A stretch of DNA of 64,000 nucleotides. It comes from Cordylochernes scorpioides. Taxonomy: Eukaryota; Arthropoda; Arachnida; Pseudoscorpiones; Chernetidae. A program made the translations under genes and the position numbers. How positions within the stretch are numbered: the stretch's first letter is position 1; every line of letters begins with the position of its first letter. The notes under the pieces were generated by a model. That model ran no database searches and was not told the origin of the DNA. It saw only the letters and a program-made list of their open reading frames with translations. The stretch spans positions 23,022,467 to 23,086,466 of the forward strand of contig CP092880.1 in the NCBI GenBank assembly GCA_030710605.1, in the 5' to 3' direction. Of this stretch, positions 776 to 58,790 are shown in pieces.

Positions 776-1100
776 AGATATAAAAATAAAAATGACCACT
801 CTGTTAAATAAAAAATAATAAAATTAAGAAATACTATGTTACATAAATAAAATTAATAAATACTACGTTACAATATATATCATCATTCGAAGATCTTTCT
901 AAATATATTAATGAAGAAAGAGATAGAGAGAGAACATAGAATAAATATATTTTAGAATATATTTTAAAACATGCTATATATTGCTCGTTTCTTCTTAACA
1001 AGAAGTTTATGTATGAGAAAAGAAAATATTTTCTAAGATTCCTTAATTTATGAAAATAGTACAAATGTGATATTGTACTGGGATAAGGTGCATAAATTAT
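776..1100. other. AT-rich stretch, nothing recognised
   Basis: Low-complexity A/T-rich sequence with short open frames lacking any domain motif. I see no gene or repeat boundary here. Confidence 0.5.
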
Positions 1101-1101
1101 G

Positions 1102-1294
1102 AAAAAGGCATCTCCTTATCGTGTAACTGAAAGTTGCTGGTGGCTTGCGCCATCTATTGGAATAAATATCAACTATTATATTTGGTCAATTATGGAATAA
1201 TTAAAAATCAACGAGAATAATTGATATTTATTCCGATAGATGGCGCAAGCCATCAGCAACTTTCAGTTGCACGATAAGGAGATGCCTTTTTTTT
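1102..1294. mobile_element. Foldback MITE, family C (GGCATCTCCTTATCGTG ends)
   Basis: Near-perfect inverted repeat. The left arm starts AAAAAGGCATCTCCTTATCG and the right arm ends with its complement followed by TTTTTTTT. Arms are about 85 bases with a short centre and carry the block TTGCGCCATCTAT. Related copies are at 31642-31933, 54327-54510 (left end) and 63430-63585 (right end). No coding capacity. Confidence 0.8.
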
Positions 1295-1592
1295 AATTCC
1301 TAAATTTATAAAATCTTTCTAAAGCAATAACATGCCTACATTAAGAATTATATTTTTAAAATATAAACTATTCTTTAGGTAATAAAAAAGACATATATAG
1401 AATTGAATAAAATGACTTATTTGCCATAATTTCGGTTGGATGAATGCCAAATATTTTTCAAATAATTTACTGATTAATAAATTATTCGACATAGGCTATG
1501 TATAAACTATATTTTATTAATTAATTTTAAGTTTTTTTTTTATAGATAGAATGTAAAAAGGATGAGGAAAGACATTTTTTTATTATAATATT

Positions 1593-3930: not shown

Positions 3931-3937
3931 ATTAAAT

Positions 3938-5000
3938 ACTAGAGGATGTGTACCCGGCTTCGCCCGGGTTTTATCCGAGTGAAAGTTTGCCTAACGAATA
4001 TTATATATTATGAAGTATAATAAACAATGTTAAAGATTAGTTTTAATTATTAATCAAGATTGTGTGTGAATATGTGAGAAAGATGAAATATCGTTGTTGT
4101 TTTCTTGGCCGACTGTTTTACATATGGTGTTATCTTAAAATTGCTTGTTTTGAATATTTTTTTAGATTGAGTTGAATGAATTGCTGAATTTTTTTTTTTT
4201 TTTTGTATTTATATACTAGCGGACGTACCCGGCTCCGCCCGAGGTTTAACCCGAGTAAAGGTTTGTCTAGTGAACATTTGTTAAAACAATTCTCTAAAAA
4301 CTTATTTTTAAAAAAAAGATATATTTTGATAATTTGAAACTCGTAAATTTGAATCTCTCGATAAAGTGAACATTTTTTCCCGGTCCCTGTGTGCCGTGTC
4401 ATCCTGAATTTTGTCTTTCCTAATTTTCTACATTAGAAAATCATTGTTTTATCTAGTGAACATTTTTTCCCGTGTCACATTGCCGTGTCATCCTGAGATA
4501 ATCTTACTTTTGATAAATAATATTTAAGATAACAAACTTAGTGATAAGAAAACTTGTTATCATCGTCACAATGGGGGCGCTGCTTGCGAGTTAAATCTAC
4601 AAATCTGCAAATAACTCTAAGGATATTCAAGATATTCATGAAATTATTTTTCAAAAACCTTCCCGGTAATATACCTAATAATATCCCAAAATTTCACGGC
4701 GATTGGATGTATGGTTTTTGAATCTATAGAGTACAGACAAACAGACAGACAGACAGACATTCAATTTTATATATATAGATAAATAAAATTAACTCTGTTG
4801 ATTTTTTTGTATTTAATCGATAACAGCGAAGTTACGCATGTTAAAGTTAGGAAAAATATTTTTATGTTAAGCAAAACCTGCTCCATCTCGTTTTACATAA
4901 ATGTTGAAAATTTGGTCGAAATTGATGCATTGTAACGAAAGTTTTTAGTGAACAACAATTATGAAATTTGCATTTTATTAATATAGATAGGAACAAAATA
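3938..5000 (+). mobile_element. RTE-related repeat interrupted by a second copy
   Basis: The outer element starts ACTAGAGGATGTGTACCCGG (3938) and is interrupted after TTTGTATTTATAT by another element (4215-4780). It resumes at 4781 with AAATAAAATTAACTCTG and runs to about 5000. The same outer sequence occurs at 34786-35052 plus 40282-40500, where a large LTR element interrupts it near the same place. No ORF. The CCGGCTTCGCCCGGG start and TATATATAGAT ends are the style of RTE-mobilised non-autonomous elements. Confidence 0.65.
4215..4780 (+). mobile_element. RTE-related non-autonomous element, nested
   Basis: Starts ACTAGCGGACGTACCCGGC and ends with an ACAGACAGACAGACA run, a TTCAATTTTATATATAT block and AGAT. 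This is the usual 3' tail of RTE/BovB-type retrotransposons and their SINE partners. It also contains a block (about 4385-4435: CGTGTCATCCTGAATTTTG) shared with 26890-26940 on the other strand. No coding frame. Confidence 0.7.
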
Positions 5001-6095
5001 AAAAATGTATTTTTGACCATTTTAAAACTCTTTAAAACCTAACTAGTTTATTTAAAATTGTATTTTAAATAAATTCTTTTAAAACATTGTATCTGAAGAG
5101 AGTAAGAAGAAAAGGTTGCCATAAGTGTAATAATAAAGTGTGAAAATACAGGAATAGAGATTTACTCCCATCAATAGAATATTTTAAAGTCCATATAAAT
5201 AGGCTGGAACACGGATGACTCCGAGCTTATTTTCTCAGCTCTTATTTGCTGGAAGGGATGATAGTGTATTTATTTCAGGAGAAGTTTCCTTTTTTTATTT
5301 ATTCTTTTGTGTTTAGAATGATATTTAAACTTTTATTTTTTAAATTTGTGTTTGCTTATATTGGTGTTTTGTGTATGCTGTGTTGTCTTTCTCTTATATA
5401 ACAATCCGGATTCCTGGAGCCACATACTAAAGTCGCCAACTATCTGAATTGGTCTTTACGTCTGTTGTTTCACGCTGAGTCACGAAACAACCCTATAATA
5501 CTTGAAAAATTATTATTTATTGCCAAAACTACAGTAGACATCTAAAGTAACAAGATTACTCGATTCCTAACACTGGACTGGACTTCTCAATTTCATCCAT
5601 ACGTTCTATTTATGGCACAAATAATTTAAACTGAAACTATGTAAATTGTAATACAACAAAGAACAAATATGCACTGAGTAAATATGCAAATAACAACAAC
5701 ATCTAAGGATGGACAACCAGTTTATCAGATGTACTGTACTTGGGATGTTCTGCAGGTCTTCAGAAGTAAATATACTTATTCCTACTATAGTGGATGCTTG
5801 GAACCTATGAAGGTGGGACATCTGTGGTGGTCAACAGTTTGGTCTTCCTTGAGGCAATGTGAGCAGTTAGTGTCGCCTTTTTTTTTTGCAGCACATCGGC
5901 TTTGACAAAGCCGTGACCAGTGAGGATTGTAGAGGCGGTACCACAAAATTTTATTTTGGGTAGAAGTGTTGTTTTGTGTGTGTTGTTAAATTTAAAGTTT
6001 TGTTCTAAGTTTTTTTATAATTTATAAATATAAATTTCAACATATTGATTTTTTCTGAGTGAATGATATGTGTAAAATTAAAAATGTCCCTAAAT
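5001..6095. other. No gene recognised
   Basis: AT-rich sequence without repeat boundaries I can define. Short frames on both strands at 5606-5905 overlap antiparallel and have no domain signature, so I treat them as chance. Confidence 0.4.
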
Positions 6096-6400
6096 ATGAA
6101 TATACGAGTGGTTTAAACCCTTGGTTTTCGATCGCTACCAACCGGGATAGAATCCCGCATTGGGCACTTTTTTTTATAATTAAAAAGATATGCTCCAATG
6201 GTCCCCGATTCTTGCAAAAGTTCAACCCCATTAGCGAATGCAACTAACCAAACAGGGCTATGGCATATTAGTAAGTGTAAAGTCGAACTGCTTTTCATAT
6301 GTATAGACATGTGGTGCACTTACAGTAAACGCAGTCGCCAACTTCTACTCACCAAGATTAACATGGCATTGTACCACATGCTAAGGATAATCCTGTACAG
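6096..6400 (+). mobile_element. tRNA-derived SINE
   Basis: Carries the B-box-like region (CCGGGATAGAATCCCGCATT), the ACTTTTTTTT spacer, GATTCTTGCAAAAG, AAAGTCGAACTGCTTTTC, ACATGTGGTGCACTTACAG and the 3' block TGGCATTGTACCAC. The tail is decayed and the 5' end is altered upstream of about 6105. Confidence 0.75.
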
Positions 6401-6585
6401 TAGTGAGACATTGTTTTTTCCTGATCTAAATCATTTAACTCTCTTACATCAGCCACTTTGTCTATATATATTTTATGCAATCTATCGAATAATACATGTA
6501 AATTTGTAAAAATCTAATTCTAAGTTCTAATTTGTTTGTTGTTTTGTTTGTTTCCTCTGTAATAGGCGTAAATATTTCAATATAG

Positions 6586-6987
6586 TATAATGCACTAGCG
6601 CGCCATCTGTTATCAAAATTCAAAACTATTTTAAAGGCGTAAGATTATTTTTGATATTAAACAATTTCTACTGCCCTTACTGCAATGGAAAAATTAATGA
6701 GAGGGCCTGGCTCATCAGTGGGGAACCCTCTCAGCGGTTTCGCCAGTTTAATCTACCATACCGCTGTTATATTGCATTTTTGGAACTTCCTTTTATAGTG
6801 ATACTGTTGGTAGACTCTTTGAATTGGTATTTTAGAAGAACTATGGACATAAGCTTTGAGGACAGTAGAGAGGGTTCACCACTGATGAGCCAGGCCCTCT
6901 CATTAATTTTTCCATTGCAGTAAGGGCATTAGAAATTGTTTAATATCAAAAAGAATCTTACGCCTTTAAAATAGTTTTGAATTTTGA
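6586..6987. mobile_element. Foldback MITE, family B (MULE-like duplication)
   Basis: Terminal blocks TGCACTAGCGCGCCATCTGT...CAAAATTC (left) and the complement GTTTTGAATTTTG (right) enclose inverted half-units (ACTGCAATGGAAAAATTAAT, GAGGGCCTGGCTCATCAGTG). The element is flanked by TTTCAATATAG at 6575-6585 and 6988-6998, an 11-bp (12 with the leading A) direct duplication. An uninterrupted relative of the flanking sequence lies at about 59215-59245. A duplication of 9-12 bp is the habit of Mutator-like (MULE) elements. Confidence 0.8.
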
Positions 6988-6999
6988 TTTCAATATAGT

Positions 7000-7724
7000 G
7001 TCTGATTGATTGATAAAATGTAACTAGGGATATTTTTTTAAAAAAGTGAATTATGCAGTAAAATAATTGATTTATACGCATAGATAAAAAAGGAAAAAAA
7101 GATATTTATTTTTGACTATGAGCCAAGTTGGGGTTCTTCCATCCTTCACAGGATGCTAGAGACCTCTGCGTGTTCTATCTGATCACGCAATCTCTTTCAA
7201 CGCCTTTTTCTTCCTAATTGAAACTTAACGCTTCCTTTCCTTGTTTTAAATTAATATCGTGTTTCACTCAGTGGCTTCAATCTTCTACATCTTTTATTCA
7301 AACCTTTACTTTCTCATTGAGAACGTTTGTTTTTTTTATCAACATGAAAGAAAAAAACAAATGGAAACAATAATAAATATAAAATAAATATCTAGATAAT
7401 TGTGTTGTTTTATATGTTAAATAATATTTAAATTCTTTTTCATAGAAAAGAAAGAGTGTGTTTGTATAATTTATATTTTAACTTAGCAAAATTCTTTAAC
7501 TTCATTTTCATATTGAAAGATATTTTTAGGCGTGAGAATATATAAACAATTCAATAGAAAGATCAAATAATATTTTATTATTATAAATTAAAATTTAAAT
7601 TTTATAATGATATTAAATAAAGGTCAGATAAAATATCTAAAGAAAATATTTTTATATTCGTAGAAAATTTTAAAATATTTCGAAATTAAAATTGAGATGT
7701 TTACAATTTGAAAGAACATAATCT
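7000..7724. other. AT-rich stretch, no gene recognised
   Basis: Very A/T-rich sequence with no long frame, no clear repeat boundary and no RNA gene signature. Confidence 0.45.
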
Positions 7725-8110
7725 AAAAAGACATATCCTGACCGATACCATGATCATTTTAGATAGCAGAGTGCCATCTAGTGAAACAAATATGAACTAA
7801 ATGTTGATTTAACTTGTTCTATTATATTTGGCCAATTCATTTTCTTGATAAATGCTTCAATGGCTCCCGATTCTTTCAAATGTCCAACCCCATCAGCTAG
7901 TGCAAGTAGCTAAACGGGGCTCTGGCACATTTGTAAGTGCAAAGTCGAACTGCTTTTCACATGTGTAGACATGTGGTGTACTTACAGTAAAAGCAGTCAA
8001 CTTCTACCCACCATGGTTATCATGGCATTGTACCAAGTGTGTACTAGGGATAACCACGTCAACCACGAACGCGTTTCGAGCTGTTGGTCCTCATCAGCAT
8101 GGTGCAGACT
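7725..8110. mobile_element. Foldback family D half-element carrying a SINE fragment and a ribozyme motif
   Basis: 7725-7853 matches the left arm of family D (GACATATCCTGACC, GAGTGCCATCTAGTG, TTGGCCAATTC). A SINE fragment (about 7853-8052, plus strand) then replaces part of the centre. 8054-8110 matches the central part containing the hammerhead-like motif. Compare the more intact copy at 21138-21515. Confidence 0.6.
8061..8103 (-). ncRNA. Hammerhead-ribozyme-like motif, type I layout
   Basis: Read on the minus strand: stem I strand ACCAUG, core CUGAUGA, stem II GGAC/GCUC (one wobble or mismatch) with loop CAACA, then GAA, the palindrome ACGCGU, a single U (the cleavage-site position) and stem I strand CGUGGU. 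Stem I pairs over six positions with one G-U. All invariant hammerhead core bases are present. The very short palindromic stem III resembles the small hammerheads described in Penelope-like elements, which tend to act as dimers. Activity is inferred, not shown. Confidence 0.7.
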
Positions 8111-8256
8111 GTACCTCAACCTCCGCCCCCAGTCCACATATGGTGTGAAAGGTTTTAGCCTCTTTAGGATTTCGTCGTAACATTATAAATATATATAAAC
8201 ATCCAAATATATTTATTATGATATCTTAAACAGATTAATAAACAATGATAAGAATA

Positions 8257-8494
8257 AAAATAAAAATGGCATATCCTGACCAGGAGCACATGTGCTTTAC
8301 AGAAGGCAGAACGCCATCTGGTGGAACAGAAATCATTCGTGGATGGCTTTTCTTGATATATCAAGATATTGGGTTGGCCAAATATCAGGGAACAGGCTAA
8401 ATCAATGTTTAGTTGATTTCTGTTCCACCAGAAGGCGTTCTGCCTTCTGTAAAGCACATGTGCTCCTGGTCAGGATATGCCATTTTTATTTTTG
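8257..8494. mobile_element. Foldback MITE, family D
   Basis: Long inverted repeat: left arm GGCATATCCTGACCAGGAGC, right arm its complement ending GGTCAGGATATGCC. Arms of roughly 75 bases carry AACGCCATCTGGTGG. The centre holds TGGCTTTTCTTGATATATCA but lacks the ribozyme motif found in sister copies. Confidence 0.8.
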
Positions 8495-8734
8495 ATTTCA
8501 ACACCTTATCTTTCTATCTTTTATTTTTCTTTCATTTTTTTAATGATAAGAGTATGCTAATATTTCAAAAATCGATCAGAACCTGAAGCTCTAACATGGT
8601 TGTTGATATTTAAAAATTGAAAACAGGTTTGTCCAATGAAGAAACAATCCGGTATATATCTGTAAGTATAGTCAATTATCGCTATGGAATAGCTAAAGAC
8701 TTCACAATTGATAACTCTGTAAATGTATTATATA

Positions 8735-12573: not shown

Positions 12574-12586
12574 TCTCCCCTCTTAA
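12574..12586 (-). promoter_or_regulatory. Polypurine tract
   Basis: Minus strand reads AAGAGGGGAGA immediately before the LTR start TGTGTTGTG. This is the expected plus-strand priming site for reverse transcription. Confidence 0.75.
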
Positions 12587-13213
12587 TAGTAGTGCAGCCG
12601 GTCTGGCGGTCTTCTGGATCGCTGCGGTCTTGGACTGCGCACAGGGACAGGGACAGCCGCAGCAGCAGGGCCCGGTTCTGGTTCTGGAGTGTCCTCTTGT
12701 GCTGAAAACTCCGCTCCTTTCAATTCTTCGTCCACCTCCAGGGTTTCTTCCCTTGTCTTCTCCTGTCCTCCAAGCCCAGGGTGATCTCGAGAAGTGCCAG
12801 GCAGTATAAAATCTCTTGATATACCCGGCAATACCAAATCTCTCACTTCAGGAACTTCTTTCTTGATAACTGGCCTTAGCTGATTTATGTGTCTCTTCAC
12901 ATAACGGCCTTCGTCTTCTATAAGGTAATGTCGGCTGCTCAGTAGTTCCATGATCCAGCCCTTTTTCCATTTTGGTCCGTTAGCAAAACTCCGGAAATAC
13001 ACATCAGAGCCGACCGCAAAATGCTTTTGCTTCCTCATGGCATCATGGTACACCTCTCCTACCTTCGCCATTTTCGGAATCAAATTTGAAAATCTTGATC
13101 TTAGATTTCTTTTCATTAAAAGTTCCGCGGGAGACTCCTTTAATACCGTTTGAGGAAAAGCTCTATGAGCGAATAAAAATCGCTGTAGATTGATTTCTAC
13201 ACTGTCCTTTCCT
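12583..13213 (-). pseudogene. Integrase C-terminal part of gypsy pol
   Basis: This frame continues integrase after the 579-bp insertion. It contains a GPY/F-like segment (DVYFRSFANGPKWKKGW) followed by RHYLIEDEGRYVKRHINQLRP, the typical DNA-binding tail of gypsy integrases, and then a charged proline-rich end to the stop near the polypurine tract. The open frame runs on to 13416, but residues encoded above 13214 belong to the inserted element and not to integrase. Confidence 0.85.
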
Positions 13214-13225
13214 TGGTTCTTTCGT

Positions 13226-13804
13226 CGGGCGGAAGACCCTGTGGGGCTGCCCTCTACGGTCACCCTAGAGGGGAGTGAGTGTAGAGAGGCGTCTCTACGT
13301 GTTGCACTCGCGAAAGCGAGGCGCACGTGTCTTGAAACTCTTGGGTCTTCGCTCTGTGTGTGCGCCATTGGGAGCGTCCTTGCCGTGCGCACCATGAGAA
13401 ACCAAGGGGTGCACACAGTAGTACCACCCCCCCGCCTCCACGTCGGTGTCCCCGCGTCAACCTCGGCACCTCAGAGGTCCTTGATTCGACGGCAGATTCA
13501 GGGAGGACTGGGTAAGGGTGCGAGGGCTAAAGGGGGGGGAGTCCTATAGGAGCGTAGGACGGGTGGATCCAAGTCCGAACGAGAGGGCTCGGACAGTAAC
13601 CTTGCCAATGAACTCTCGGAGACGCCTGTGGGTGAGTGGTCAACCCCATTGTAGCCGGACCATACTGGCGGGCGCGAGGGGCCTACCAAAGGCCGCTCGG
13701 TGCATGGAGAATGCATCATTCCTTCGGGCTGTGTGACGCTAGAGGGGACGCAAGGGCATTGCTGCCTATATCGTCCCTGGCTATATGAGCCGAATTTTCT
13801 AATC
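13226..13804. mobile_element. Unidentified 579-bp GC-rich insertion
   Basis: Interrupts integrase. It is flanked by exact 12-bp duplications TGGTTCTTTCGT (13214-13225 and 13805-13816). The two halves of integrase read across the junction once it is disregarded. The insert is far more GC-rich than the rest of the window and has CTAGAGGGGA near each end in the same orientation (about 13265 and 13739). It shows no TG...CA ends, terminal inverted repeat, poly-A tail or coding domain that I can identify. A 12-bp duplication would fit target-primed retroposition or a MULE-like element. Confidence 0.75.
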
Positions 13805-13816
13805 TGGTTCTTTCGT

Positions 13817-14427
13817 AAAGAGTTTTTAAATTCACGTACATATCGCTCAGCTAAGCCATTAGTGCTGGGATTGACGGACTCGTTTTTGTGTGTCTTATAC
13901 TATTTATTTTTGTAAATTCCTCAAATTCACTTGAGACAAATTGTCTGCCATTATCGGTTACCAAAAGTTCAGGTAATCCAAATCGGGCAAAGATCTCCCT
14001 AAGATGTCCTATGATGGTCCTGCTCGTAATGTCCTTTATGATGACAATCTCCAGCCATTTGGTGTACGCGTCTACAAGGACCATAAACATTCGTCCCATA
14101 AAGGGACCTGCTAGATCTAAGTGTAGACGGTGCCACGGCTTCTCAGGCCAAGTCCACTCTGAAATGGTAGACGGCGGCATACTTGCAGATTCTTGGCAAA
14201 TTCTACAATCTCTAGCCAATTCTTCAATGTTCTTTTCTATGCCTGGCCACCAAAAATACCGTCTAGCAATCATTTTCATTTTTACCATCCCTAGGTGCAT
14301 CTCATGTAAATCGTTCAAAATTAAGGATCTTAATTTTTGGGGAATTACCACTCTTTCACGCCATTGCAAACAACCAAACTCACAACTTAATTCGTCTTTT
14401 ATCCTATAATAGGAACAAAGTGGATTT
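13817..14427 (-). pseudogene. Integrase N-terminal and catalytic core of gypsy pol
   Basis: Reading from 14427, the frame contains an HHCC zinc-binding region (HEMHLGMVKMK ... DCRICQ). The catalytic core follows, with Asp in HLDLAGPF and Asp in TDNGRQF. The third acidic residue lies near the insertion, where the frame is also disturbed around 13850. A TAG stop at 14430-14432 separates it from the RNase H frame. Confidence 0.85.
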
Positions 14428-14429
14428 TC

Positions 14430-14813
14430 CTACGATACCTTTGGAATTTGCCAATTATTTTCCCTAACATTTCTCAACACAATTAATAGTAATTTATCCC
14501 GGCGTGTCTCAACTGCCACATCCTGGAATGAGAAGGGGACCTCACTCATTTTCCGCAGGAGAAGCACCTGATCCTCATCCAAAGATTCCGTGGTCTTTGA
14601 GACTAAAGGTAATCGTGATAACGCGTCTGCATTGCCATTATCATCAGTTTTTCGAAACTCCACAGTGTATTTAAATGCAGATAATTTTAACGACCACCTC
14701 TTAATTCTTGATGCAGCACATATGGGGATCGGTTTCTGGGGTGAAAAAATGTGCATTAAAGGTCGGTTGTCTGTGACCAACACAAATTCACGTCCCAATA
14801 GATATTGTCGGAA
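14430..14813 (-). pseudogene. RNase H region of gypsy pol
   Basis: Contains EFVLVTDNRPLMHIF, GNADALSRLP and related motifs that follow reverse transcriptase in Ty3/gypsy polyproteins. It is bounded by an in-frame TAA (14814-14816) on the RT side and a TAG (14430-14432) on the integrase side, so pol cannot be made as one protein. Confidence 0.85.
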
Positions 14814-15840
14814 TTAATCACAACCAAAAATAATGCTTAAGGCTTCTTTTTCTAATTGCGAATACCGCCTTTCCGTTTCAGTTAGCGTTCTTGAAGCAAA
14901 GGCTATAGGAGTTTCTTCCTTTCTATCGTTTCTGTGACTCAGAACCACTCCTAAACCATAGCTAGAAGCGTCACATGCAAGGACTAGTTCCCTAGTTGCA
15001 TCATAATGTGCCAGCACCGACTCGTTAGTTAGCAATGCTTTGCATTTTGCAAATAATATACGGTGTTCGCTAGTCCAGTTCCATTTGGAATTCTTTTTTA
15101 AGAGGTGATAGAAGGGTGCTAAAATATCCGCAATATTTCTTATAAACCTAGAGTAATACATAAGGAGACCTATAAAAGATCTCAATTGAGAAACGTTTGT
15201 AGGTTCAGGCGCCTCTACCACCGCTTCTATTTTACTACTTATGGGATGCAGTCCTTTTTTTTTATCTATTTTAAAACCTAAATATTCAACAGCATTTACT
15301 GCGAATTTGCATTTATTCTTGTTTAATCTTAAACCTTTTTCTTGCAGCCTTTTTAAGACCAATTCCAGCTTTTGTTCGTGATCCCTATGATCCTTTCCGG
15401 CTACCAGGATGTCATCGATGTAGCAAGCCACTCCCGACATATCTGCAAATAGATTGTCCATTTCTCTTTGAAACTTATTCGGTGCTACAGCTACTCCATA
15501 GGGTAGCCTTTTAAAGGCAAATAACCCCTTCGTAGTATTAATGTTTACCACTCTTTTGGCCTCTTCAGATAATCTGACCTGCAAATAAGCTATGGATAAG
15601 TCCAATGACGAAAACACTGTATTTCCAGACAATTTTGAAAATATTTCGTCTATTGATGGAAGCGGGTATTTATCCAATTCTATGGCCTTATTTGCGGTGC
15701 ATCTAAAATCGCCGCAAATTCTAAGGCTTCCATCTTTCTTCAGTACTGGTACTATAGGTGCGGCCCAGTTTGCATACTCAATAGGTTGTAAAATTCCCTC
15801 GTTAACCATACCATCGATTTCATTCTCTATTTTTTTTCTT
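14814..15840 (-). pseudogene. Reverse transcriptase of gypsy pol
   Basis: Reverse transcriptase for copying element RNA to DNA. Visible motifs: WAAPIVPVLKKDGSLRICGDFR, SSLDLSIAYLQV, the active site YIDD in CYIDDILVAG, LGFKID, and the start of RNase H (LACDASSYGLGVVLSHR). The methionine at 15809 is internal, since homologous sequence continues upstream. Frameshifts in the A/T runs near 15845 and 15890 separate it from gag-protease, and a TAA follows GCD at 14814. Confidence 0.92.
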
Positions 15841-15865
15841 CAAAGAAAAAGGCAAACTTCTCGCC

Positions 15866-17125
15866 TTACAAAATACAGGAGTCGTATTTTTTTTTTAAAT
15901 AAAAATCAATATGGACGTTTTTTAAGCAACCTAATTCTTTGCTAAATAAATTAGCATACTTATTTATTATAACTTTGATATCGGACTCGCTTACTTGTCT
16001 AATGTTCAATAACCTAGAAAAATCAAGATTTAAACCTTTTAGCCATTCTCGTCCCAACAAAACTATCGAAATATCTTCATCTACAACTATCAACCGCAAA
16101 TCTTGATTTGCCTCCTTCACAAAAACTCTTCTCTCACCAATAATTTTTATTGGTTTTCCGCAAAAGGACCTCAATCTTAAATAAGATGGAGATAATTTAT
16201 TATCTTTCCAGTATTTTTCATAAATTGTTTTCGATATCAGTGTGACGGGACTTCCCGTGTCCACCACAAAACACAACTGATACTCGTCAACATGTAGATT
16301 TATTTTTGCATCAGTATCACCTTGTACCGAATAAATAAATTCGTCTTGCACATATCTGCAGTCTGGCAAGGATTTACCCGTTTTGCACACCCTGCTCAAA
16401 TGTCCAATTTTCTTGCATTTAAAACAAGATTTTGTTTTATGTGGACATGCAGGTGCCAGGTGAGAGTTTTTTTCGCCGCATCGGAAACAAATTGTCTCCC
16501 TTCTTTGCATACCGGGCCCATGCTGCCATCCTCTACGAGCTTCATTCTTTCTACTTCCTCCCGGAACAATATCCAACTTAGCTACTAGTCCATCCTGCAG
16601 CTCCTTAGCATTTTGTTCAGCTAGCTCAAACGAGACTGCTATAGAAAATACCCTGTCCAAGGTGACATCGTCATCCTCCTGTAACAATTTCTTCTGAAGG
16701 CTTTCCGATTTTATACCAGCCACAAAACGGTCTCGTAACATGACCTCCAACATTTCACCAAAAGTGCAATCCATAGCTAAATGCCTGAGCTCACGCAGGT
16801 ATTCTGAGACGGATTCATTCTCTAGTTGTATTCTCTTCAAGAACCTGCAGCGTTGAGGAATCACTTTCTTTCTTGGAGCTAGATGTAGCTTTATTCTTTG
16901 TATTAAACGTTCATAAGGTTGTTCTTTCATTGTACTCGGGAAAAACAAATCATTGCCCAGCTTCAACATTTCCGAATCCAGAAGAGAAACAAAGATGGGC
17001 ATTCTTTTTCCTTCTTCTAATGTATTTGCCTCAAAAGCTGCTTCGAACCTTTGAACGAAGATATCAAAGGATTCTTCTCCTGGCCTAAAGGAACAGAACG
17101 GTACAATTATTGGGCATCCAGACAT
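15866..17125 (-). CDS. Gypsy gag-protease polyprotein part
   Basis: 419 codons from the ATG at 17125. The N-terminal ~200 residues are a retrotransposon gag (FVQRFEAAFEAN ... YLRELRHLAMDC). Two zinc knuckles follow (CFRCGEKNSHLAPAC and CFKCKKIGHLSRVC), for RNA packaging. An aspartic protease comes next, with active site DTGSPVTL and the flap-end motif VLLGREWL seen here as IVLLGREWL. The last ~15 residues are out of frame after a slip in an A run, so the link to RT is lost. Start choice: first ATG after the leader. Confidence 0.88.
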   Translation of the reverse strand: MSGCPIIVPFCSFRPGEESFDIFVQRFEAAFEANTLEEGKRMPIFVSLLDSEMLKLGNDLFFPSTMKEQPYERLIQRIKLHLAPRKKVIPQRCRFLKRIQLENESVSEYLRELRHLAMDCTFGEMLEVMLRDRFVAGIKSESLQKKLLQEDDDVTLDRVFSIAVSFELAEQNAKELQDGLVAKLDIVPGGSRKNEARRGWQHGPGMQRRETICFRCGEKNSHLAPACPHKTKSCFKCKKIGHLSRVCKTGKSLPDCRYVQDEFIYSVQGDTDAKINLHVDEYQLCFVVDTGSPVTLISKTIYEKYWKDNKLSPSYLRLRSFCGKPIKIIGERRVFVKEANQDLRLIVVDEDISIVLLGREWLKGLNLDFSRLLNIRQVSESDIKVIINKYANLFSKELGCLKNVHIDFYLKKKYDSCIL

Positions 17126-17151
17126 ACGGTTGGCTTCTCGTTCGCTTTATA

Positions 17152-18570
17152 CACTGCGTGACATTGAAAATGGAACACCAAGAAATAGTGGCCAGAAAAT
17201 TATGCAAATTTCAGGGTAGACGCGCCTAACCGAGTTATGCAAATGATGTAAAATGCGCAGCTCTCGTGCGCACATGGAGTAAGATATAAGGGAAGGAACT
17301 TGCAGAAAGGACAGTATTCGTGTCGTTATTTCTTCAAAGAAAATCATTGTAGAAATTTTGTTCTTGTGTCAAAAGACACGTGTAATAACAGAGAATGCCA
17401 GGTCATCGTAAACGGAGGCAGTTCAAGCAGACAGACGCTTTAACGAGGGGCATGGTGATCGGACTGAAAAGGGCAGGTTGGTCCATACGTCAAATCGCAG
17501 CTGATACACACCTTGGTGCGTCCAGGGTGCACCGACTGTGGAGAAGATGGTTGGAACAAGGAAGTGTGGCAATTTATAGGAATGCCGGTGCAACCAGAGT
17601 GACGTCAGCACGTGTGGATCGGCGTATCCTTTGACAAGCAGTGGCGGCCCCACAAGCCACTTGTACCGCCATCCTGCAACATGTGCAAGACACCCTAGAT
17701 CATTCCATCTCGACCAGAACCATTTTCCGTCGATTGGTTGCTAATGGCTTGCACTCATGCCGTCCGCTAAGAAGACTGCCATTGACCCTACCGAATAGGC
17801 GCCAACGTTTGGATTGGTGCCGGGCTAGATCGACGTGGATGACGGAATGGCACAGGGTCGTGTTCTCAGATGAGTCGCGTTTCTGCTTGTCCAGTGATAG
17901 TCGCCGTGTACGCGTGTGGCGTCGACGTGGAGAAAGGTCCAATCCGGCAGCAATTGTGGAACGCCCCACCGTGCGACAACGTGGAATCATGGTTTGGGGC
18001 GCAATCGCGTATGATTCCAGGTCACCTTTACTTCGTATTCAGGGCACTATGACGGCCCAACGATACGTTGATGATGTTCTGCGACCGGTGACACTCCCCT
18101 ACCTTCAGGGGGTACCCAATGCCCTTTATCAGCAGGACAACGCCCGACCGCACACTGCTCGCATTAGCCAACAAGCTCTGCAAGATGTACAGATGCTTCC
18201 CTGGCCACCGTACTCTCCTGATCTCTCACCAATCGAGCACGTCTGGGACATCATTGGACGCCGTTTGCATGCCTTGCCACAGCCGCGTTCAGAAGACGAA
18301 CTGTGGCAAATGGTTGAGAGGGAATGGAGAGCCATCCCTCAAGACGCCATCCGTACTCTGATTGACTCTCTACCTAGACGTGTTGCTGCGTGCATCGCCG
18401 TCCGCGGTGGTCCTACTTGCTACTAAGCCGACGCCGTTCTCGCTCTGTATTATGACTATCATTTTGAAATAAAGATCACTTATTGTTCGTCCCTGTCTCT
18501 CTCTGTCTGCCGAGTTTCATCACTTTCTGGCCACTATTTCTTGGTGTTCCATTTTCAATGTCACGCAGTG
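17152..18570 (+). mobile_element. Tc1-like transposon, copy 1
   Basis: 1419 bases with inverted ends CACTGCGTGACATTGAAAAT and complement, and TA on both sides (17150-17151, 18571-18572). It is inserted in the leader of the gypsy element, so it is younger than that element. Same length as copy 2 at 19403-20821. Confidence 0.93.
17395..18426 (+). pseudogene. Tc1 transposase, one nonsense codon
   Basis: Cut-and-paste transposase gene of 343 codons plus stop, broken by TGA at 17632-17634 where copy 2 has CGA (Arg). N-terminal helix-turn-helix region (about residues 10-60, SIRQIAADTHLGASRVHRLW), second DNA-binding part, then the catalytic domain with VFSDESRF, QQDNARPHTA and SPDLSPIEHVWD. I count 32 residues between the second Asp and the Glu. 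Apart from the stop, the catalytic motifs look better preserved here than in copy 2. Confidence 0.9.
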
Positions 18571-19402: not shown

Positions 19403-20821
19403 CACTGCGTGACATTGAAAATGGAACACCAAGAAATAGTGGCCAGAAAATTATGCAAATTTCAGGGTAGACGCGCCTAACCGAGTTATGCAAATGATGT
19501 AAAATGCGCAGCTCTCGTGCGCACATGGAGTAAGATATAAGGGAAGGAACTTGCAGAAAGGACAGTATTCGTGTCGTTATTTCTTCAAGGAAAATCATTG
19601 TAGAAATTCTGTTCTTGTGTCAAAAGACACGTGTAATAACAGAGAATGCCAGGTCATCGTAAACGGAGGCAGTTCAAGCAGACAGACGCTTTTACGAGGG
19701 GCATGGTGATCGGACTGAAAAGGGCAGGTTGGTCCATACGTCAAATCGCAGCTGATACACACCTTGGTGCGTCCACGGTGCACCGACTGTGGAGAAGATG
19801 GTTGGAACAAGGAAATGTGGCAATTTATAGGAATGTCGGTGCAACCAGAGTGACGTCAGCACGTGTGGATCGGCGTATCCTTCGACAAGCAGTGGCGGCC
19901 CCACAAGCCACTTGTACCGCCATCCTGCAACATGTGCAAGACACCCTAGATCATTCCATCTCGACCAGAACCATTTCCCGTCGATTGGTTGCTAATGGCT
20001 TGCACTCATGCCGTCCGCTAAGAAGACTGTCATTGACCCCACCGAATAGGCGCCAACGTTTGGAATGGTGCCGGGCTAGATCGACTTGGATGACGGAATG
20101 GCACAGGGTCTTGTTCTCAGATGAGTCGCGTTTCTGCTTGCCCAGTGATAGTCGCCGTGTACGCGTGTGGCGTCGACGTGGAGAAAGGTCCAATCCGGCA
20201 GCAATTGTGGAACGCTCCACCGTGCGACAACGTGGAATCATGGTTTGGGGCGCAATCGCGTATGATTCCAGGTCCCCTTTACTTCGTATTCAGGGCACTA
20301 TAACGGCCCAACGATACGTTGATGATGTGCTGCGACCGGTGACACTCCCCTACCTTCAGGGGGTACCCAATGCCCTTTATCAGCAGGATAACACCCGACC
20401 GCACACTGCTCGCATTAGCCAACAAGCTCTGCAAGATGTACAGATGCTTCCCTGGCCACCGTACTTTCCTGATCTCTCACCAATCGAGCACGTCTTGGAC
20501 ATCTTTGGACGCCGTTTGCATGCCTTGCCACAGCCGCGTTCAGAAGACGAACTGTGGCAAATGGTTGAGAGGGAATGGAGAGCCATCCCTCAGGACGCCA
20601 TCCGTACTCTGATTGACTCTCTACCTAGACGTGTTGCTGCGTGCATCGCCGTCCGCGGTGGTCCTACTTGCTACTAAGCCGACGCCGTTCTCGCTCTGTA
20701 TTATGACTATCATTTTGAAATAAAGATCACTTATTGTTCGTCCCTGTCTCTCTCTGTCTGCCGAGTTTCATCACTTTCTGGTCACTATTTCTTGGTGTTC
20801 CATTTTCAATGTCACGCAGTG
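19403..20821 (+). mobile_element. Tc1-like transposon, copy 2
   Basis: 1419 bases with the same inverted ends as copy 1 and TA on each side (19401-19402, 20822-20823). The open frame is intact. Confidence 0.93.
19646..20677 (+). CDS. Tc1-like transposase, uninterrupted
   Basis: 343 residues from ATG 19646 to TAA, the usual Tc1 length. It would bind the element's inverted repeats and cut and rejoin DNA at TA sites. Helix-turn-helix region near residues 10-60; catalytic motifs LFSDESRF, QQDNTRPHTA and FPDLSPIEHV. Compared with copy 1 it carries DNTRPH for DNARPH, YFPDL for YSPDL, HVLDIF for HVWDII, and VLF for VVF. Several of these positions are well conserved in Tc1 proteins, so activity is doubtful despite the intact frame. 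An AATAAAG-type signal follows the stop (about 20719). Confidence 0.9.
   Translation: MPGHRKRRQFKQTDAFTRGMVIGLKRAGWSIRQIAADTHLGASTVHRLWRRWLEQGNVAIYRNVGATRVTSARVDRRILRQAVAAPQATCTAILQHVQDTLDHSISTRTISRRLVANGLHSCRPLRRLSLTPPNRRQRLEWCRARSTWMTEWHRVLFSDESRFCLPSDSRRVRVWRRRGERSNPAAIVERSTVRQRGIMVWGAIAYDSRSPLLRIQGTITAQRYVDDVLRPVTLPYLQGVPNALYQQDNTRPHTARISQQALQDVQMLPWPPYFPDLSPIEHVLDIFGRRLHALPQPRSEDELWQMVEREWRAIPQDAIRTLIDSLPRRVAACIAVRGGPTCY

Positions 20822-21033: not shown

Positions 21034-21083
<50 letters not shown>
21003..21083. repeat. (TA)n microsatellite
   Basis: Runs of TA interrupted once by CATTTGTACTATTTTTTCA. Confidence 0.9.
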
Positions 21084-21085
<2 letters not shown>

Positions 21086-21137
21086 AAGCAATAGAAAAAA
21101 ATAAAAGATAAGTGGGTCAGGTGTTGATAAATAAAAA

Positions 21138-21515
21138 TAAATAAGGCATCTGACCACGAGCACATGTGCTTTTTAGATGGCAGAGCGCCATCTAGTGGAG
21201 CAAAAATAAACTAAACGTTTATTTAGCTTGCTCCGAGATATTTGGCCAACCCAATACCCATTTCTTGATATTTCGGGAAGCCATTAATATCAAAAATCAT
21301 TTTGGTCGAAGTGGTTACAGCCTTCTCCACGCTGACGAGCGCCAACAGCGCGAAACGCGTTAGTGGATGGCTTTTCTTGATTTATCAAGAAATTGGGTTG
21401 GCCAAATATCTCGGAGCAAGCTAAATAAACGTTTAGTTTATTTTGCTCCACTAGATGGCGCTCTGCCATCTAAAAAGCACATGTGCTCGTGGTCAGGAGA
21501 TGCCTTCTTTATTTT
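21138..21515. mobile_element. Foldback MITE, family D, with central ribozyme motif
   Basis: Arms of about 140 bases: left GGCATCTGACCACGAGCACA, right the complement TGTGCTCGTGGTCAGGAGAT. They include GAGCGCCATCTAGTGG and TTTGGCCAACCCAAT. The ~100-base centre holds a hammerhead-like motif (21326-21367, plus). No coding frame. This is the best-preserved copy of the family. Confidence 0.85.
21326..21367 (+). ncRNA. Hammerhead-ribozyme-like motif, type I layout
   Basis: Plus strand: stem I strand UCCACG, core CUGACGA (position 7 is free, so this is a full match), stem II GCGC/GCGC with loop CAACA, GAA, palindrome ACGCGU, then U and stem I strand AGUGGA. Stem I pairs at five of six positions, with an A-G mismatch beside the cleavage site. 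The core is complete. Location in the centre of a foldback repeat matches the motif at 8061-8103. Confidence 0.72.
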
Positions 21516-21673
21516 TAATATATATATATGTATATATATTTATCGATTATTTTATATATATTTATTTATCTATATTTATTGACATTTATTCAATTCTGTA
21601 TTTAGCCATATATAATCTTATATGAACATTGAACTGAAGTAGTTTAAATCTAAATCTCTCTCCCTCTCTCGCG

Positions 21674-22063: not shown

Positions 22064-23379
22064 CAGGGTCCATTATGAAAGTAATGAGCATTTACTGGTA
22101 AAATACATTTATTGATCGTAATTTGTGCAAATGTTCAATAGTCTTCAAAATACATTCCTCCTGCATCAATACACTTGCGGAGACGCGTTTGCCACGCCTG
22201 AAAGGCACCCTGAAACTCCTCGACAGGAATGCTTCCCAAGAACATTGTAACATGGTGTTGGATGATTTCCACGGTTTCCCAATGTTTTCCTTTCATCTCT
22301 CTCTTGAGTCTAGGAAACAAAAAGAAGTCACATGGAGCTAAGTCGGGACTGTAAGGGGGGTGAGGGATCACCGGGGTGTTGCTCCGGGCCAGGAAGTTGG
22401 TAATGATGAAGGCTGTGTGGCTGGTGGCATTGTCATGGTGGAGCTTGACCGTGTCTTTAATGTCAGTCCTCACGCGTGCGATCTGGCGTTTCAATCTCCT
22501 GAGCACCTCCAGGTAAAAGGCTGAGTTTACAGTTTGTCCCTGCGGTACAAACTCACAATGGACTATTCCTCGGATGTCAAAGAAGACAATGATCATCGTT
22601 TTGATGCGCGACTTGCTCATTCGCGCTTTCTTGGGGCGTGGGGATGATTTTGTGTGCCATGCACAGCTCTGCCTTTTCGACTCTGGGTCGTATTCAAACA
22701 TCCAGGATTCGTTTCCGGTTACTACAGAGTTCAGAAAGTCCGGTTCATTTTGAATCAAATCCAACAATTCTTGACAGCGCAAAACTCTAAGTTCTTTCTG
22801 GTCTTGCGTCAACACTTTCGGCACGAGCTTCGCACAGACCTTACGCATTTGCAGATCCTCGGTCACTATCCCATGTACCACAAATGTGGACATGTGTAAT
22901 GTGTCAGCAATTTGCTGGATGCTTAATCGACGGTCGGTAAGCAAAACTTCGAGCACACGATCCACGTTCTCGTCAGTTCTGGACGTTGTTGGGCGTCCTG
23001 AACGGGGATCGTCGGCAACCTCCTCCCGGCCCTCCTTGAGTGCCTTGTGCCACTTCCCAGACTGTGATCTTGAAATACAATCGTCCTTGAAGGCTTTTTG
23101 CAGAACCTGGAATTTTTCGGTTGCATTTTTTCCAAGCCTCACGCAAAACTTTATGGTGTATCGTTGTTCAAGCGAACGCTCCATCGCGCTATGTTACAAA
23201 AGTTGAAAACACACTTCAAGCGGAGGCATGTATCTCCCCTCACACTGCTCGAGCTCAACTGACGACCGGATGGATTGAAAGGGCATATCCCTCCACCACA
23301 TTTCTCACGGTTTTACCGTGCTGCCATCTATCGTCGCGTCACAATAACATTATGCTCATTACTTTCATAATGGACCCTG
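22064..23379 (-). mobile_element. Mariner transposon
   Basis: 1316 bases, inverted ends CAGGGTCCATTATGAAAGTA and complement (about 28 bases), TA on both sides (22062-22063, 23380-23381). The single gene is on the minus strand. Confidence 0.93.
22135..23184 (-). CDS. Mariner transposase, intact frame, altered first catalytic Asp
   Basis: 349 residues, normal mariner length. N-terminal paired-type DNA-binding region (about residues 8-110: SQSGKWHKALKEG, DDPRSGRPTTS, RRLSIQQIADTLHMS). Linker with WVP-like segment replaced by KLVPKVLT. Catalytic part: VVTGNESWMFEYDP, HDNATSHTA, and SPDLAPCDFFLFPRLK, the last two Asp being 34 residues apart (DD34D). The first catalytic position, Asp in TGDE of the family, is Asn here (codon AAC). 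This should abolish strand cleavage although the frame is open. It could still bind the inverted repeats; that is inference. Confidence 0.92.
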   Translation of the reverse strand: MERSLEQRYTIKFCVRLGKNATEKFQVLQKAFKDDCISRSQSGKWHKALKEGREEVADDPRSGRPTTSRTDENVDRVLEVLLTDRRLSIQQIADTLHMSTFVVHGIVTEDLQMRKVCAKLVPKVLTQDQKELRVLRCQELLDLIQNEPDFLNSVVTGNESWMFEYDPESKRQSCAWHTKSSPRPKKARMSKSRIKTMIIVFFDIRGIVHCEFVPQGQTVNSAFYLEVLRRLKRQIARVRTDIKDTVKLHHDNATSHTAFIITNFLARSNTPVIPHPPYSPDLAPCDFFLFPRLKREMKGKHWETVEIIQHHVTMFLGSIPVEEFQGAFQAWQTRLRKCIDAGGMYFEDY

Positions 23380-31625: not shown

Positions 31626-31641
31626 ATAAGGACAAATAAAT

Positions 31642-31933
31642 AAAAAGGGCATCTCCTTATCGTGCAACTAAAAGTTGCTGATGGCTTGTGCCATCTGTCT
31701 GAATAAATATCAACTATTCTTGTTGATTTTCAATTATTCCAGAATTGGCCAAATTCCCGTTCTTGATTAAGCAAATTATTTGATTAATCAATTGACAATT
31801 TAATTAATCAAAAATGGGTATTTGGCCTATTCTGGAATAATTATAAATCAACAGAATAGTTTATATTTATTCCGACAGATGGCGCTAGCCATCAGAAACT
31901 TTCAGTTGCACGATAAAGAGATGCTTTTTTCTT
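31642..31933. mobile_element. Foldback MITE, family C
   Basis: Arms of about 130 bases starting GGGCATCTCCTTATCGTGCA and complement, carrying GTGCCATCTGTC / GACAGATGGCGC and GAATAAATATCAACTATTC. The centre is TTGATTAATCAATTGACAAT. No ribozyme motif in this copy. Confidence 0.8.
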
Positions 31934-31939
31934 AATGTA

Positions 31940-32425
31940 TCCACCTGATCCCAGTAAAATCTCACATTTGTATTTTTTTTGCACAATAAGAACAAGTCCA
32001 GTTATGTATAAATCAACTATAATGCAATAACGTGTTATAAAGTGAAGAATCGAATTTCTACTCTTAACAACCATACACCTATGAGCACACGTTGTAAGAA
32101 TAATTAGAAAATATAAAAAGTTCAATAACGATATAAGACCACAAAAAAATCTGAAAGTAGTAACAACACAGGGCCTCCGAGGATAAGTCTTTTGCTTTAT
32201 TTAAAAGATTTAAGCTTTCGGGTATCATAAATCCTTCTACAGAAGTATCTCTCTTGTTCTAAAATAACTTTATTTATTTTAGTACCAGTTGCAAATAAGA
32301 CACGCTATAACCGATCTGGATAATTGCGCGTGATACTATTTACAAAAATATATATTGTGGTAGAGTAGGTAACAGAATTATCAAAAAGAAAATAAACAAT
32401 TAAGAAAAAGAGCATTGAATAAACA
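31940..32425. other. No gene recognised; one hairpin relic
   Basis: Mostly AT-rich. Around 32213-32250 (minus) is CUGUAGAAGG, a short hairpin and CCCGAAAGCUU, similar to sites at 33615 and 49575; see findings. Confidence 0.4.
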
Positions 32426-46412: not shown

Positions 46413-46589
46413 AAATCCAGATACGTTCTTTTTGATATAAATATATTCAATAGAGATCGCCTTTTGAATCAAAAGGTCTTGATAATAAAAAGCTTATAAG
46501 ACTTAAGTAAAAAAAGACAAAATATCTAACCATTTTGAGATAGATAACTATCTATTGATCATTTTTATATGAAAAATAGACACTTCGGC

Positions 46590-46760
46590 CAGTTGGAAGT
46601 TTTTTATTTTCTCAACGTTTCGACAAAAATATTTTGTCTTCGTCAAGAGAAGTAAATAAAAAAGAGCATTTGGCAAGGCGTTAAAAATTCCAAAGTGTCT
46701 TTAACATATAAATATGAATGCCGGCAAGGCAGCTTCTTTCTTTACGAAATCTATTGATCA
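46590..46760 (-). mobile_element. Penelope-like terminal fragment
   Basis: Minus strand ends TTGACGAAGACAAAATATT, TTTTGTCGAAACGTTGAG, AAAATAAAAAAC, then CTGGCCGAAGTGTC. The same module appears at 58690-58770, next to GCCGGCATTCAT-type repeats that are also present here (about 46735). CGAAACGTTGAG next to a hairpin is familiar from Penelope-like element ends. Confidence 0.5.
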
Positions 46761-46795
46761 GTTTTTGAGAAAAATAAAAAGGTCATTTGTTGATA

Positions 46796-54510: not shown

Positions 54511-54534
54511 GTACAACATTGTGTTAATAGTTAT

Positions 54535-57970: not shown

Positions 57971-58590
57971 AAAGATAGAGGCTGCCTGGCCGGCATTCAT
58001 AGTGTTTCAAATTAAAGATACTTCGACCAGTAAATCTTTTTTATTGTCTCTCTTATTTATAGTAAAGATAGAGGCTGCCTGGCCGGCATTCATAGCGTTT
58101 CAAATTAAAGATACTTCGACCAGTAAATCTTTTTTATTGTCTCTCTTATTTATAGTAAAGATAGAGGCTGCCTGGCCGGCATTCATAGCGTTTCAAATTA
58201 AAGATACTTCGACCAGTAAATCTTTTTTATTGTCTCTCTTATTTATAGTAAAGATAGAGGCTGCCTGGCCGGCATTCATAGCGTTTCAAATTAAAGATAC
58301 TTCGACCAGTAAATCTTTTTTATTGTCTCTCTTATTTATAGTAAAGATAGAGGCTGCCTGGCCGGCATTCATAGTGTTTCAAATTAAAGATACTTCGACC
58401 AGTAAATCTTTTTATTGTCTCTCTTAATTAACGTGAAAATAGAAACTGCCTGGCCGGCATTCATAGTGCTTCAAATTAAAGATACTTCGGCCAGTAAATC
58501 TTTTTAATGTATTCTTAATTAACGTAAAAATAGAGGCTCACTGGCCGCATTCATAGTTCTTCAAATTAAAGATACTTCGACCAGTAAATA
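57971..58590. repeat. 93-bp tandem repeat, about seven units
   Basis: AAAGATAGAGGCTGCCTGGC starts at 57971, 58064, 58157, 58250 and 58343, then two decayed units. Because 93 is a multiple of three, the array gives a 141-codon frame of 31-residue repeats (58002-58427), which I treat as incidental. Confidence 0.93.
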
Positions 58591-58689
58591 ATTTTATTAT
58601 TCAAGGTTTAAAAATTTGTACAGAATTAAAAATTTAAAGTGAGAACGCCCTTACAGCCTTAGACTAATGTTTAACGTTTTGCCAAATGT

Positions 58690-58790
58690 TTTAATTTGTG
58701 TTTGCTCCTGACAAGGACAAAAGATTTTTGTCGAAACGTCGAGATAATAAAAAGATATACTGGCCGAAGTATCTTTAATTTGAAGATATT
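58690..58790 (+). mobile_element. Penelope-like terminal fragment
   Basis: GCTCCTGACAAGGACAAAAG, ATTTTTGTCGAAACGTCGAG, ATAATAAAAAGATATACTGG, CCGAAGTATCTTTAATTTG. It joins directly to sequence also found in the 93-bp repeat (GATACTTCGGCCAGT, inverse), and matches 46590-46700 in inverse orientation. Confidence 0.5.

What the first reader, a model, noticed from the sequence alone, without database searches (positions are those of the whole stretch)
21326..21367. Hammerhead-ribozyme motif in the centre of a foldback MITE
The sequence gives a full hammerhead core (CUGACGA, four-base-pair stem II with loop CAACA, GAA) followed by a palindrome ACGCGU as minimal stem III and a stem I pairing at five of six positions. 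Small type I hammerheads with tiny stem III are known from Penelope-like elements. Here the motif sits in a ~380-base hairpin element with no coding capacity, suggesting a non-autonomous partner of such an element.
Basis: partly seen in the sequence, partly recalled or inferred. Interest (0 to 1): 0.8.

Follow-up and report, generated by a model that had tools for sequence, protein, structure and literature searches.

The report
Hammerhead retrozyme inserted by Penelope machinery
The palindromic repeat belongs to a very large family of tiny non-coding elements that carry a self-cutting RNA, and the way its copies end suggests that Penelope-type retrotransposons paste it into the genome, a link proposed before for such elements but without a shared motif to support it.

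Summary
The hammerhead motif at 21326-21367 is real, though this copy is mutated (A for C beside the cut site). Its family has 19,979 exact matches to a 35-base hammerhead pattern in this 2.62-Gb genome, none to the reversed control (the window copy, being mutated, is not among them). The natural unit is a 349-bp tandem repeat (sister family 338 bp), 41% GC: an animal non-LTR retrozyme, not a MITE. The 'foldback' is two copies inserted head-to-head. In a sample chosen without regard to architecture, outer ends fall at two unit positions ~45 nt apart (31 of 31 segments in family A, 39 of 42 in B) while inner ends scatter. Insertions carry one short and one long end: 16 of 17 classified pairs in the sample, 4 of 4 in the window. 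This is the 'tail' signature of Penelope-like elements (PLEs), seen by eye in 11 of 11 head-to-head PLE insertions here. In both, the short end lies in the loop of a 7-bp hairpin; that stem covaries between the retrozyme families. I conclude that PLE reverse transcriptase/endonuclease integrates this retrozyme, working on both target strands. Cleavage, circles and PLE dependence are inferred.

The parts
21080..21252 (-). left inverted arm, retrozyme family A, unit positions ~214-400 reading outward; long ('tail') 3' end abutting (TA)n
   Evidence: Mapping (match runs to 21270, overlapping the right arm by 18 nt); flanks. Lacks 3 nt in the RT-start hairpin arm.
21253..21521 (+). right direct arm, unit positions 84-353; short 3' end abutting (TA)n
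   Evidence: 97% identical to the reference unit taken from L011.
21326..21367 (+). type I hammerhead core with inner stem I, stems II and III; predicted cut between 21361 and 21362; A at 21362 breaks the 1.1-2.1 pair in this copy
21319..21322 (+). outer part of stem I, AGCC, pairing with GGCT at 21369-21372 across an internal loop
   Evidence: Helix 1, two pairs with changes on both sides.
21489..21521 (+). 5' arm and loop of the RT-start hairpin (GTGGTCAGG-AGATGCC...); the insertion ends inside the loop, so the 3' arm is absent at this end
21110..21160 (-). RT-start hairpin with its 3' arm (CCTGACC) and the start of the tail, present at the long end
1053..1298 (.). another head-to-head retrozyme insertion (family B), one long and one short end
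8255..8541 (.). another head-to-head retrozyme insertion (family A), one short and one long end
31634..31985 (.). another head-to-head retrozyme insertion (family B), one short and one long end
46559..46747 (.). head-to-head PLE insertion with a minimal-hammerhead remnant; minus arm short, plus arm with tail; ATCTATTGATCA on both sides
   Evidence: repeat read by eye in the sequence printed.
57978..58609 (-). tandem array of PLE hairpin plus tail sequence
58616..58774 (+). PLE 3' piece with a minimal hammerhead (58708), ending at the short site

Best explanation
It is one copy of a high-copy animal non-LTR retrozyme that is integrated by Penelope-like element (PLE) machinery. Tandem ~349-bp units are transcribed; the type I hammerhead cuts the RNA into units, which may be ligated into circles (inferred from published retrozymes). 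A PLE protein binds a 7-bp hairpin in the unit and nicks both strands of an AT-rich target, often (TA)n, about 8-12 bases apart. Each nicked end primes reverse transcription on retrozyme RNA, one at the short site in the hairpin loop, the other at the long site ~45 nt downstream. The two cDNAs stop at variable points and their 5' ends are joined. The result is a head-to-head palindrome with one short and one long outer end, often flanked by a duplicated target. Shown here from sequence: ribozyme conservation, tandem units, two-site ends, the one-short/one-long rule shared with PLEs, the covarying hairpin, target repeats. Inferred: cleavage, circles, protein binding, which PLE family, and the order of steps.
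For: Ribozyme copies and constraint. Tandem units of 349 and 338 bp. Two 3' end clusters with scattered 5' ends. One short plus one long end in 16 of 17 classified pairs of the C1 sample, 32 of 36 over all loci, and 4 of 4 in the window, the finding's own copy included; binomial tail against one half for 20 of 21 is 1e-5. Arms of one insertion share non-reference bases in 93 of 375 cases (25%) against 7% for arms of different loci, maximum 12% in 200 shuffles. Repeats of 6 bp or more near both junctions at 14 of 20 insertions with few TATA runs, against 26% for mismatched flanks. PLEs in the same genome: an RVT_1 plus GIY-YIG ORF, 146 GIY-YIG matches of 150 scored, 3,897 minimal hammerheads, one short and one tailed arm in 11 of 11 head-to-head insertions read by eye, 8-15-bp flank repeats at the junctions in 8 of 10. 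RT-start hairpin covariation A versus B. Published PLE biochemistry: both strands cut and extended, RT starts at two adjacent internal sites, AT-rich targets (PMC11167929, parts 1-2 of 4 read); tail at one of two inverted pLTRs, TSDs of 8-10 bp in some copies (PMC3846280, passages).
Against: No RNA or transposition data. Rfam hits stay below the gathering score. A hairpin stem of this kind arises in about 2% of shuffled sequences per family (68 and 66 of 3000); folds of five longer pieces around the retrozyme and PLE hairpins have z from -0.6 to -3.0, only the L082 piece being clear, and in the family A piece the minimum-energy fold uses another pairing. In one search the number of double-change pairs and of pair types is not above shuffles. 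Retrozyme and PLE hairpins differ in sequence, and tail length differs (~47 against ~33 nt). Two short-short and two long-long pairs occur, and 6 of 42 pairs have an unclassified end. Units inside arrays are mostly uniform in some loci (L061) but not in others (L006, L009, L020, L062), so a circular template is not shown. The anole study found insertion unaffected by ribozyme mutations and no strand difference in RT start sites, so the ribozyme need not be part of integration.
Confidence: 0.82

Rival explanations
1. A DNA-transposon MITE whose inverted arms are terminal inverted repeats, mobilised by a transposase, that happens to contain a hammerhead-like sequence.
For: Long perfect inverted arms; further copies with the same gross architecture; flanking repeats.
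Against: 5' ends of 30 family A segments in the C1 sample fall at 30 different unit positions. Head-to-tail arrays exist. Outer ends are unequal, short against long. The ribozyme looks constrained.
Confidence: 0.03
2. A retrozyme mobilised by a LINE with twin priming, which also inverts the 5' part.
For: 5' truncation, inversions and TSDs are also LINE traits (established knowledge).
Against: Twin priming gives no fixed outer end for the inverted part (my inference); here both outer ends sit at the same two unit positions, usually one of each, as in the PLEs examined in this genome. LINEs of this genome were not examined.
Confidence: 0.06
3. PLE-type integration, but the second arm arises by self-priming on an antisense template (proposed for rotifer PLEs in PMC3846280) instead of a second priming event at the target.
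For: Head-to-head order and junction palindromes (PMC3846280 passages); a junction near unit positions 71-88/215-217 recurs in 6 of the 42 pairs, all in the set chosen by similarity to the window copy.
Against: Copying one arm from the other should end both at the same position, giving short-short or long-long (my inference); 16 of 17 classified pairs in the sample are short-long.
Confidence: 0.12

Closest known systems
Animal non-LTR retrozymes with type I hammerheads (Cervera and de la Pena 2020, PMC7229834, parts 1-4 of 6 read)
   Same: Type I hammerhead with short stem III, tandem units of ~170-400 nt, low GC, thousands of copies, co-existence with PLEs.
   Different: In the parts read I saw no mention of head-to-head insertions, two alternative 3' ends or an RT-start hairpin. 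The supplement was not available.
Penelope-like elements (PMC11167929, parts 1-2; PMC3846280, passages)
   Same: Head-to-head insertions, tail at one of two arms, AT-rich targets, TSDs of about 8-12 bp, hammerhead upstream of two RT start sites.
   Different: No RT/EN ORF here; a longer ribozyme; tail ~47 nt instead of ~33 in the PLEs of this genome; different hairpin sequence; ribozyme lies farther from the hairpin.
Rfam Hammerhead_HH9 (RF02275)
   Same: Best-scoring hammerhead model at the site; same core and order of helices.
   Different: Below the gathering score; stem III of 2 bp with a 2-nt loop against 3 bp and 5 nt in the model.
SINE-LINE partnerships (established knowledge)
   Same: A short non-coding element uses the recognition structure of an autonomous element.
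   Different: The partner is a PLE, and what is alike is the layout of an internal initiation hairpin, not a shared 3' sequence.

Membership tests
Hammerhead ribozyme, type I | conserved core CUGANGA...GAA...NUH with three helices, stem I open | tested here: met
   H17 is not G in 19,925 of 19,979 exact pattern hits. The regex required most of the core, so core conservation in that set is partly by construction.
Hammerhead ribozyme, type I | score above a curated covariance-model cut-off | tested here: not met
   HH9: 21.0 bits for the window copy, at most 37.1 for relatives, cut-off 52. This lowers the model-based claim; the other evidence does not depend on it.
Hammerhead ribozyme, type I | contacts between loops 1 and 2 | not tested
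   An internal loop in stem I and a CAACA loop 2 are present; contacts were not assessed.
Hammerhead ribozyme, type I | self-cleavage in vitro or in vivo | not testable with these tools
   No bench data.
Animal non-LTR retrozyme | tandem units of ~170-400 bp each with one type I hammerhead | tested here: met
   349-bp (L009, L011) and 338-bp (L061) units.
Animal non-LTR retrozyme | low GC (below 50%) | tested here: met
   0.41 for the family A reference unit.
Animal non-LTR retrozyme | no LTR, primer-binding site or polypurine tract; no protein-coding region | not tested
   Not searched for; a 349-bp unit cannot hold a reverse transcriptase.
Animal non-LTR retrozyme | expressed as small circular RNA | not testable with these tools
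   No transcriptome for this genome.
Penelope-like element | RT plus GIY-YIG ORF | tested here: not met
   The unit is too short to hold one; it is at most a non-autonomous partner. PLEs with the ORF exist in the genome.
Penelope-like element | integration signature: two 3' ends tens of nt apart, tail on one of two inverted arms, TSD | tested here: met
   PLE yardstick.
MITE | fixed internal structure with constant terminal inverted repeats | tested here: not met
   Scattered inner junctions and unequal outer ends.

The most novel reading that the evidence does not exclude
One retrozyme RNA, probably a circle, serves both cut target strands at once: a dimeric PLE enzyme starts one cDNA at the hairpin-loop site and the other at the downstream site of the same molecule, which would explain why nearly every classified insertion has exactly one short and one long end and why its two arms share variants. 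The palindrome would then be the normal product of PLE integration and not an aberration.
Probability: 0.35. Interest if true: 0.78.

Novelty: new variant of a known kind. Interest (0 to 1): 0.64.

Why it matters
[quoted passage not shown] Here retrozymes carry the PLE end signature and an initiation-type hairpin, in a genome where the PLEs examined obey the same rule. That turns a proposal into a testable pairing. The one-short/one-long rule also bears on how PLEs integrate, a poorly known step. My seven literature searches listed no paper that I could recognise, from titles, abstracts and the passages opened, as describing tails in retrozymes; the library lacks most subscription journals and preprints, and Craig et al. 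2021 on PLEs was not held.

Tried and rejected
MITE: rejected on variable centres and unequal ends. Enrichment of cDNA 5' ends at the hammerhead cut site, which would mark cleaved linear templates: none evident to the eye (C1 sample: none of 30 family A ends near 198-199; family B one at 184), but the sample was chosen for an intact ribozyme and is biased against it. The 100% arm identity of the window copy as proof of special copying: not upheld, since other insertions have diverged arms; only the shared-variant excess stands, and subfamily structure was not controlled for. Uniformity of units in arrays as proof of circular templates: mixed. Sequence similarity between retrozyme and PLE hairpins: not tested statistically; only the layout is compared. 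A regex for the second hammerhead gave no rows; the motif, already seen, was then traced by others. Species identity was not pursued; 'animal, probably an arthropod' is recalled from the look of mariner-like ORFs.

Counts and drops: L001, L021, L030, L031 and L050 were left out of the counts as self or duplicate loci (L030, L031, L050 also out of the C1 counts). Segments under 60 nt or 80% identity, and ends at locus edges, were left out. Six of 42 pairs have an unclassified end and are outside the 36; in the window one further pair, 46770-46900, is unclassified.

Sampling: one search lists 100 of 19,979 places; I fetched 40 regions covering the first 48 of them, all on contig C1, and not the other 52. 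L001-L028 were chosen by similarity to the window element and lean toward its architecture. For the PLE test I noticed 11 close minus/plus hit pairs in the list and fetched 9, adding L082 and L070, which were already held.

Full report
What is there. It sits in the right half of a near-perfect hairpin. Rfam's HH9 model finds it with relaxed thresholds only: 21.0 bits, E = 0.014, gathering score 52; the gathering search of the window lists three tRNAs and no ribozyme. Better-preserved relatives score up to 37.1 bits, E = 1.1e-6, still below gathering.

The family. The window lies in a 2.62-Gb genome of 24 contigs. A 35-base pattern of the ribozyme has 19,979 exact matches there (10,035 and 9,944 on the two strands) and none when read backwards. 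The window copy itself does not match the pattern, because of its A after the cut site. Among the 100 places listed two types are commonest: A (CTGACGA, stem II GCGC/GCGC) and B (CTGATGA, GGGC/GCCC). Copies occur head to tail with a period of 349 bp (A; L009) or 338 bp (B; L061, five ribozymes in a row). The A unit has 41% GC.

Is the ribozyme maintained? I aligned 31 of the 68 distinct copies found in the loci by a regex that requires most of the core. 96.6% of cells in the four helices form standard pairs; 43 cells changed on both sides; slid controls reach at most 39.5% paired. Compensatory changes lie in outer stem I, inner stem I and stem II. The number of pairs with double change (4) and of further pair types (15) is not above the shuffles (223 and 146 of 500), so the support is from cells, the covariation score and the slid control. 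The base before the cut (H17) is U, C or A in different copies but G in only 54 of 19,979 hits. The window copy has A for C just after the cut site and is probably weakened.

What the foldback is. Mapping copies onto the unit shows an inverted arm and a direct arm meeting head to head. To avoid bias I fetched 40 regions covering the first 48 listed pattern hits, all on contig C1, without regard to architecture, and dropped three duplicates. Outer (3') ends: family A, 31 of 31 segments in two clusters, unit positions 3-7 (16) and 46-53 (15). Family B, raw 41 of 44, or 39 of 42 without two artificial breaks in L061, in two clusters, 329-338/1-3 and 40-49; exceptions at 31, 178 and 247. 5' ends scatter: 30 family A ends at 30 positions. 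Of 18 head-to-head pairs in this sample 17 have both ends classified; 16 of these have one short and one long end, one has two long. Over all loci: 42 pairs, 36 classified, 32 short-long, 2 long-long, 2 short-short; the extra loci were chosen by similarity to the window copy. In the window four of four classified retrozyme pairs follow the rule, the finding's own copy included; one more is unclassified. The long end lies on either side. The binomial tail for 20 of 21 is 1e-5.

Targets. By eye most flanks are (TA)n or AT-rich. At 20 pairs whose flanks hold fewer than three TATA, 14 show a repeat of at least 6 bp near both junctions, against 26% for mismatched flanks; examples are ATTCTACATCT at L047 and AATTATAATCAT at L068. 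Six of the 20 show none.

The PLE yardstick. GIY-YIG (PF01541) has 146 matches of 150 scored, with 17,015 first-look candidates. L082 holds an ORF with RVT_1 and GIY-YIG in two head-to-head copies, 100% identical over 2,402 bp, each followed by a minimal hammerhead. The left arm stops after TATATAAAT, the right one goes on ~33 nt further; ATTCAGGTA lies on both sides. A 35-base pattern of the minimal hammerhead has 3,897 exact matches, 0 reversed. In nine small PLE loci picked from that list because a minus hit is closely followed by a plus hit (9 of 11 such pairs noticed), plus L082 and L070, one arm is short and the other carries the tail: 11 of 11, read by eye, the tail of L086 and the loop of L085 being internally damaged. 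Flank repeats of 8-15 bp at the expected offsets are seen in 8 of 10 loci; repeats of 9 bp or more in 7 of 90 mismatched pairings.

The hairpin. In family A, GGTCAGG and CCTGACC enclose a loop in which the short end lies, 24 nt from the 5' arm; in B, GATAAGG and CCTTATC do the same at about 22 nt; in the PLEs, CTGGCCG and CGGCCAG with the short end at 22-23 nt (distances counted by eye). On 31 retrozyme copies picked from 58 distinct regex rows, 94.9% of cells pair; two of the seven pairs carry double changes, 30 cells, between A and B; slid controls reach at most 54.4%; double-change pairs and pair types are not above shuffles. Since the change is essentially one split between two families, the 30 cells may be few events. 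Such a stem appears by chance in 68 and 66 of 3,000 shuffles. So it is the covariation and the likeness to the PLE layout that count. Free folding of larger pieces does not single it out in family A.

How it works. A PLE from the anole lizard cuts and extends both strands of an AT-rich target and starts reverse transcription at two adjacent internal sites, in an AC-rich stem loop; the stretch between the sites is the 'tail' (PMC11167929, parts 1 and 2 read). That study saw no strand difference in start sites and no effect of ribozyme mutations on insertion. Rotifer PLEs show the tail on one of two inverted terminal repeats, with TSDs of 8-10 bp in some copies and none in others (PMC3846280, passages). 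The retrozyme insertions match this picture. I infer that a PLE protein takes retrozyme RNA as template on both nicked strands. Arms of one insertion share non-reference bases in 93 of 375 cases, against 7% (maximum 12%) when arms of different loci are compared, which fits the same or sister RNA as template, though subfamily structure was not controlled. Because copying one arm from the other should give equal ends, the unequal ends favour two separate starts.

Known and new. The element fits the animal non-LTR retrozymes of PMC7229834 (parts 1-4 of 6 read). That paper calls PLEs a strong candidate for mobilisation; a review says that no conserved motif points to the partner (PMC7761336, section 9); a guide says retrozymes may rely on PLEs (PMC8969392, passages). 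The two-end signature and hairpin are such a pointer. I found no earlier report of it in the searches, with the limits of that library.

Limits. No RNA evidence, no bench evidence, one genome, one contig sampled plus the window. End classes come from BLAST borders. The sample was selected for an intact ribozyme. Which PLE family supplies the enzyme is open; a PLE with an N-terminal GIY-YIG domain also exists (L081).

Noticed in passing
46559-46747: A small head-to-head PLE insertion with a damaged minimal hammerhead, one short and one tailed arm, with ATCTATTGATCA on both sides.
   Followed up: yes
57978-58609: Tandem ~93-bp repeats made of PLE hairpin and tail sequence, next to a PLE 3' piece with a minimal hammerhead at 58708.
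   Followed up: partly
21185-21198 and 21448-21461: Both arms carry CCACTAGATGGCGC, which resembles the CTCF core motif (recalled, not tested); in a family of this size that could matter for chromatin if bound.
   Followed up: no
L081:448-2934 (-) and 5477-7964 (+): PLE with an N-terminal GIY-YIG domain, the layout recalled for 'Naiad' elements, also in a head-to-head pair with arms 99.6% identical over 3,630 columns.
   Followed up: partly
L009:2121-3104 and 3519-4501: A ~984-bp direct duplication at 99.7% identity that includes retrozyme units and the CTAGCGGACG...GGCTTCGCCCGGG sequence they abut.
   Followed up: no
12583-17146, 17635-18426, 19640-20677, 22135-23193: ORFs that look like a Gypsy-type retrotransposon, two Tc1-like and one mariner-like transposases (recognised by eye, not searched).
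   Followed up: no
7725-7853, 8061-8120, 54318-54514, 63415-63581: Further single retrozyme fragments in the window; two carry recognisable hammerheads (8097 and 54497).
   Followed up: partly
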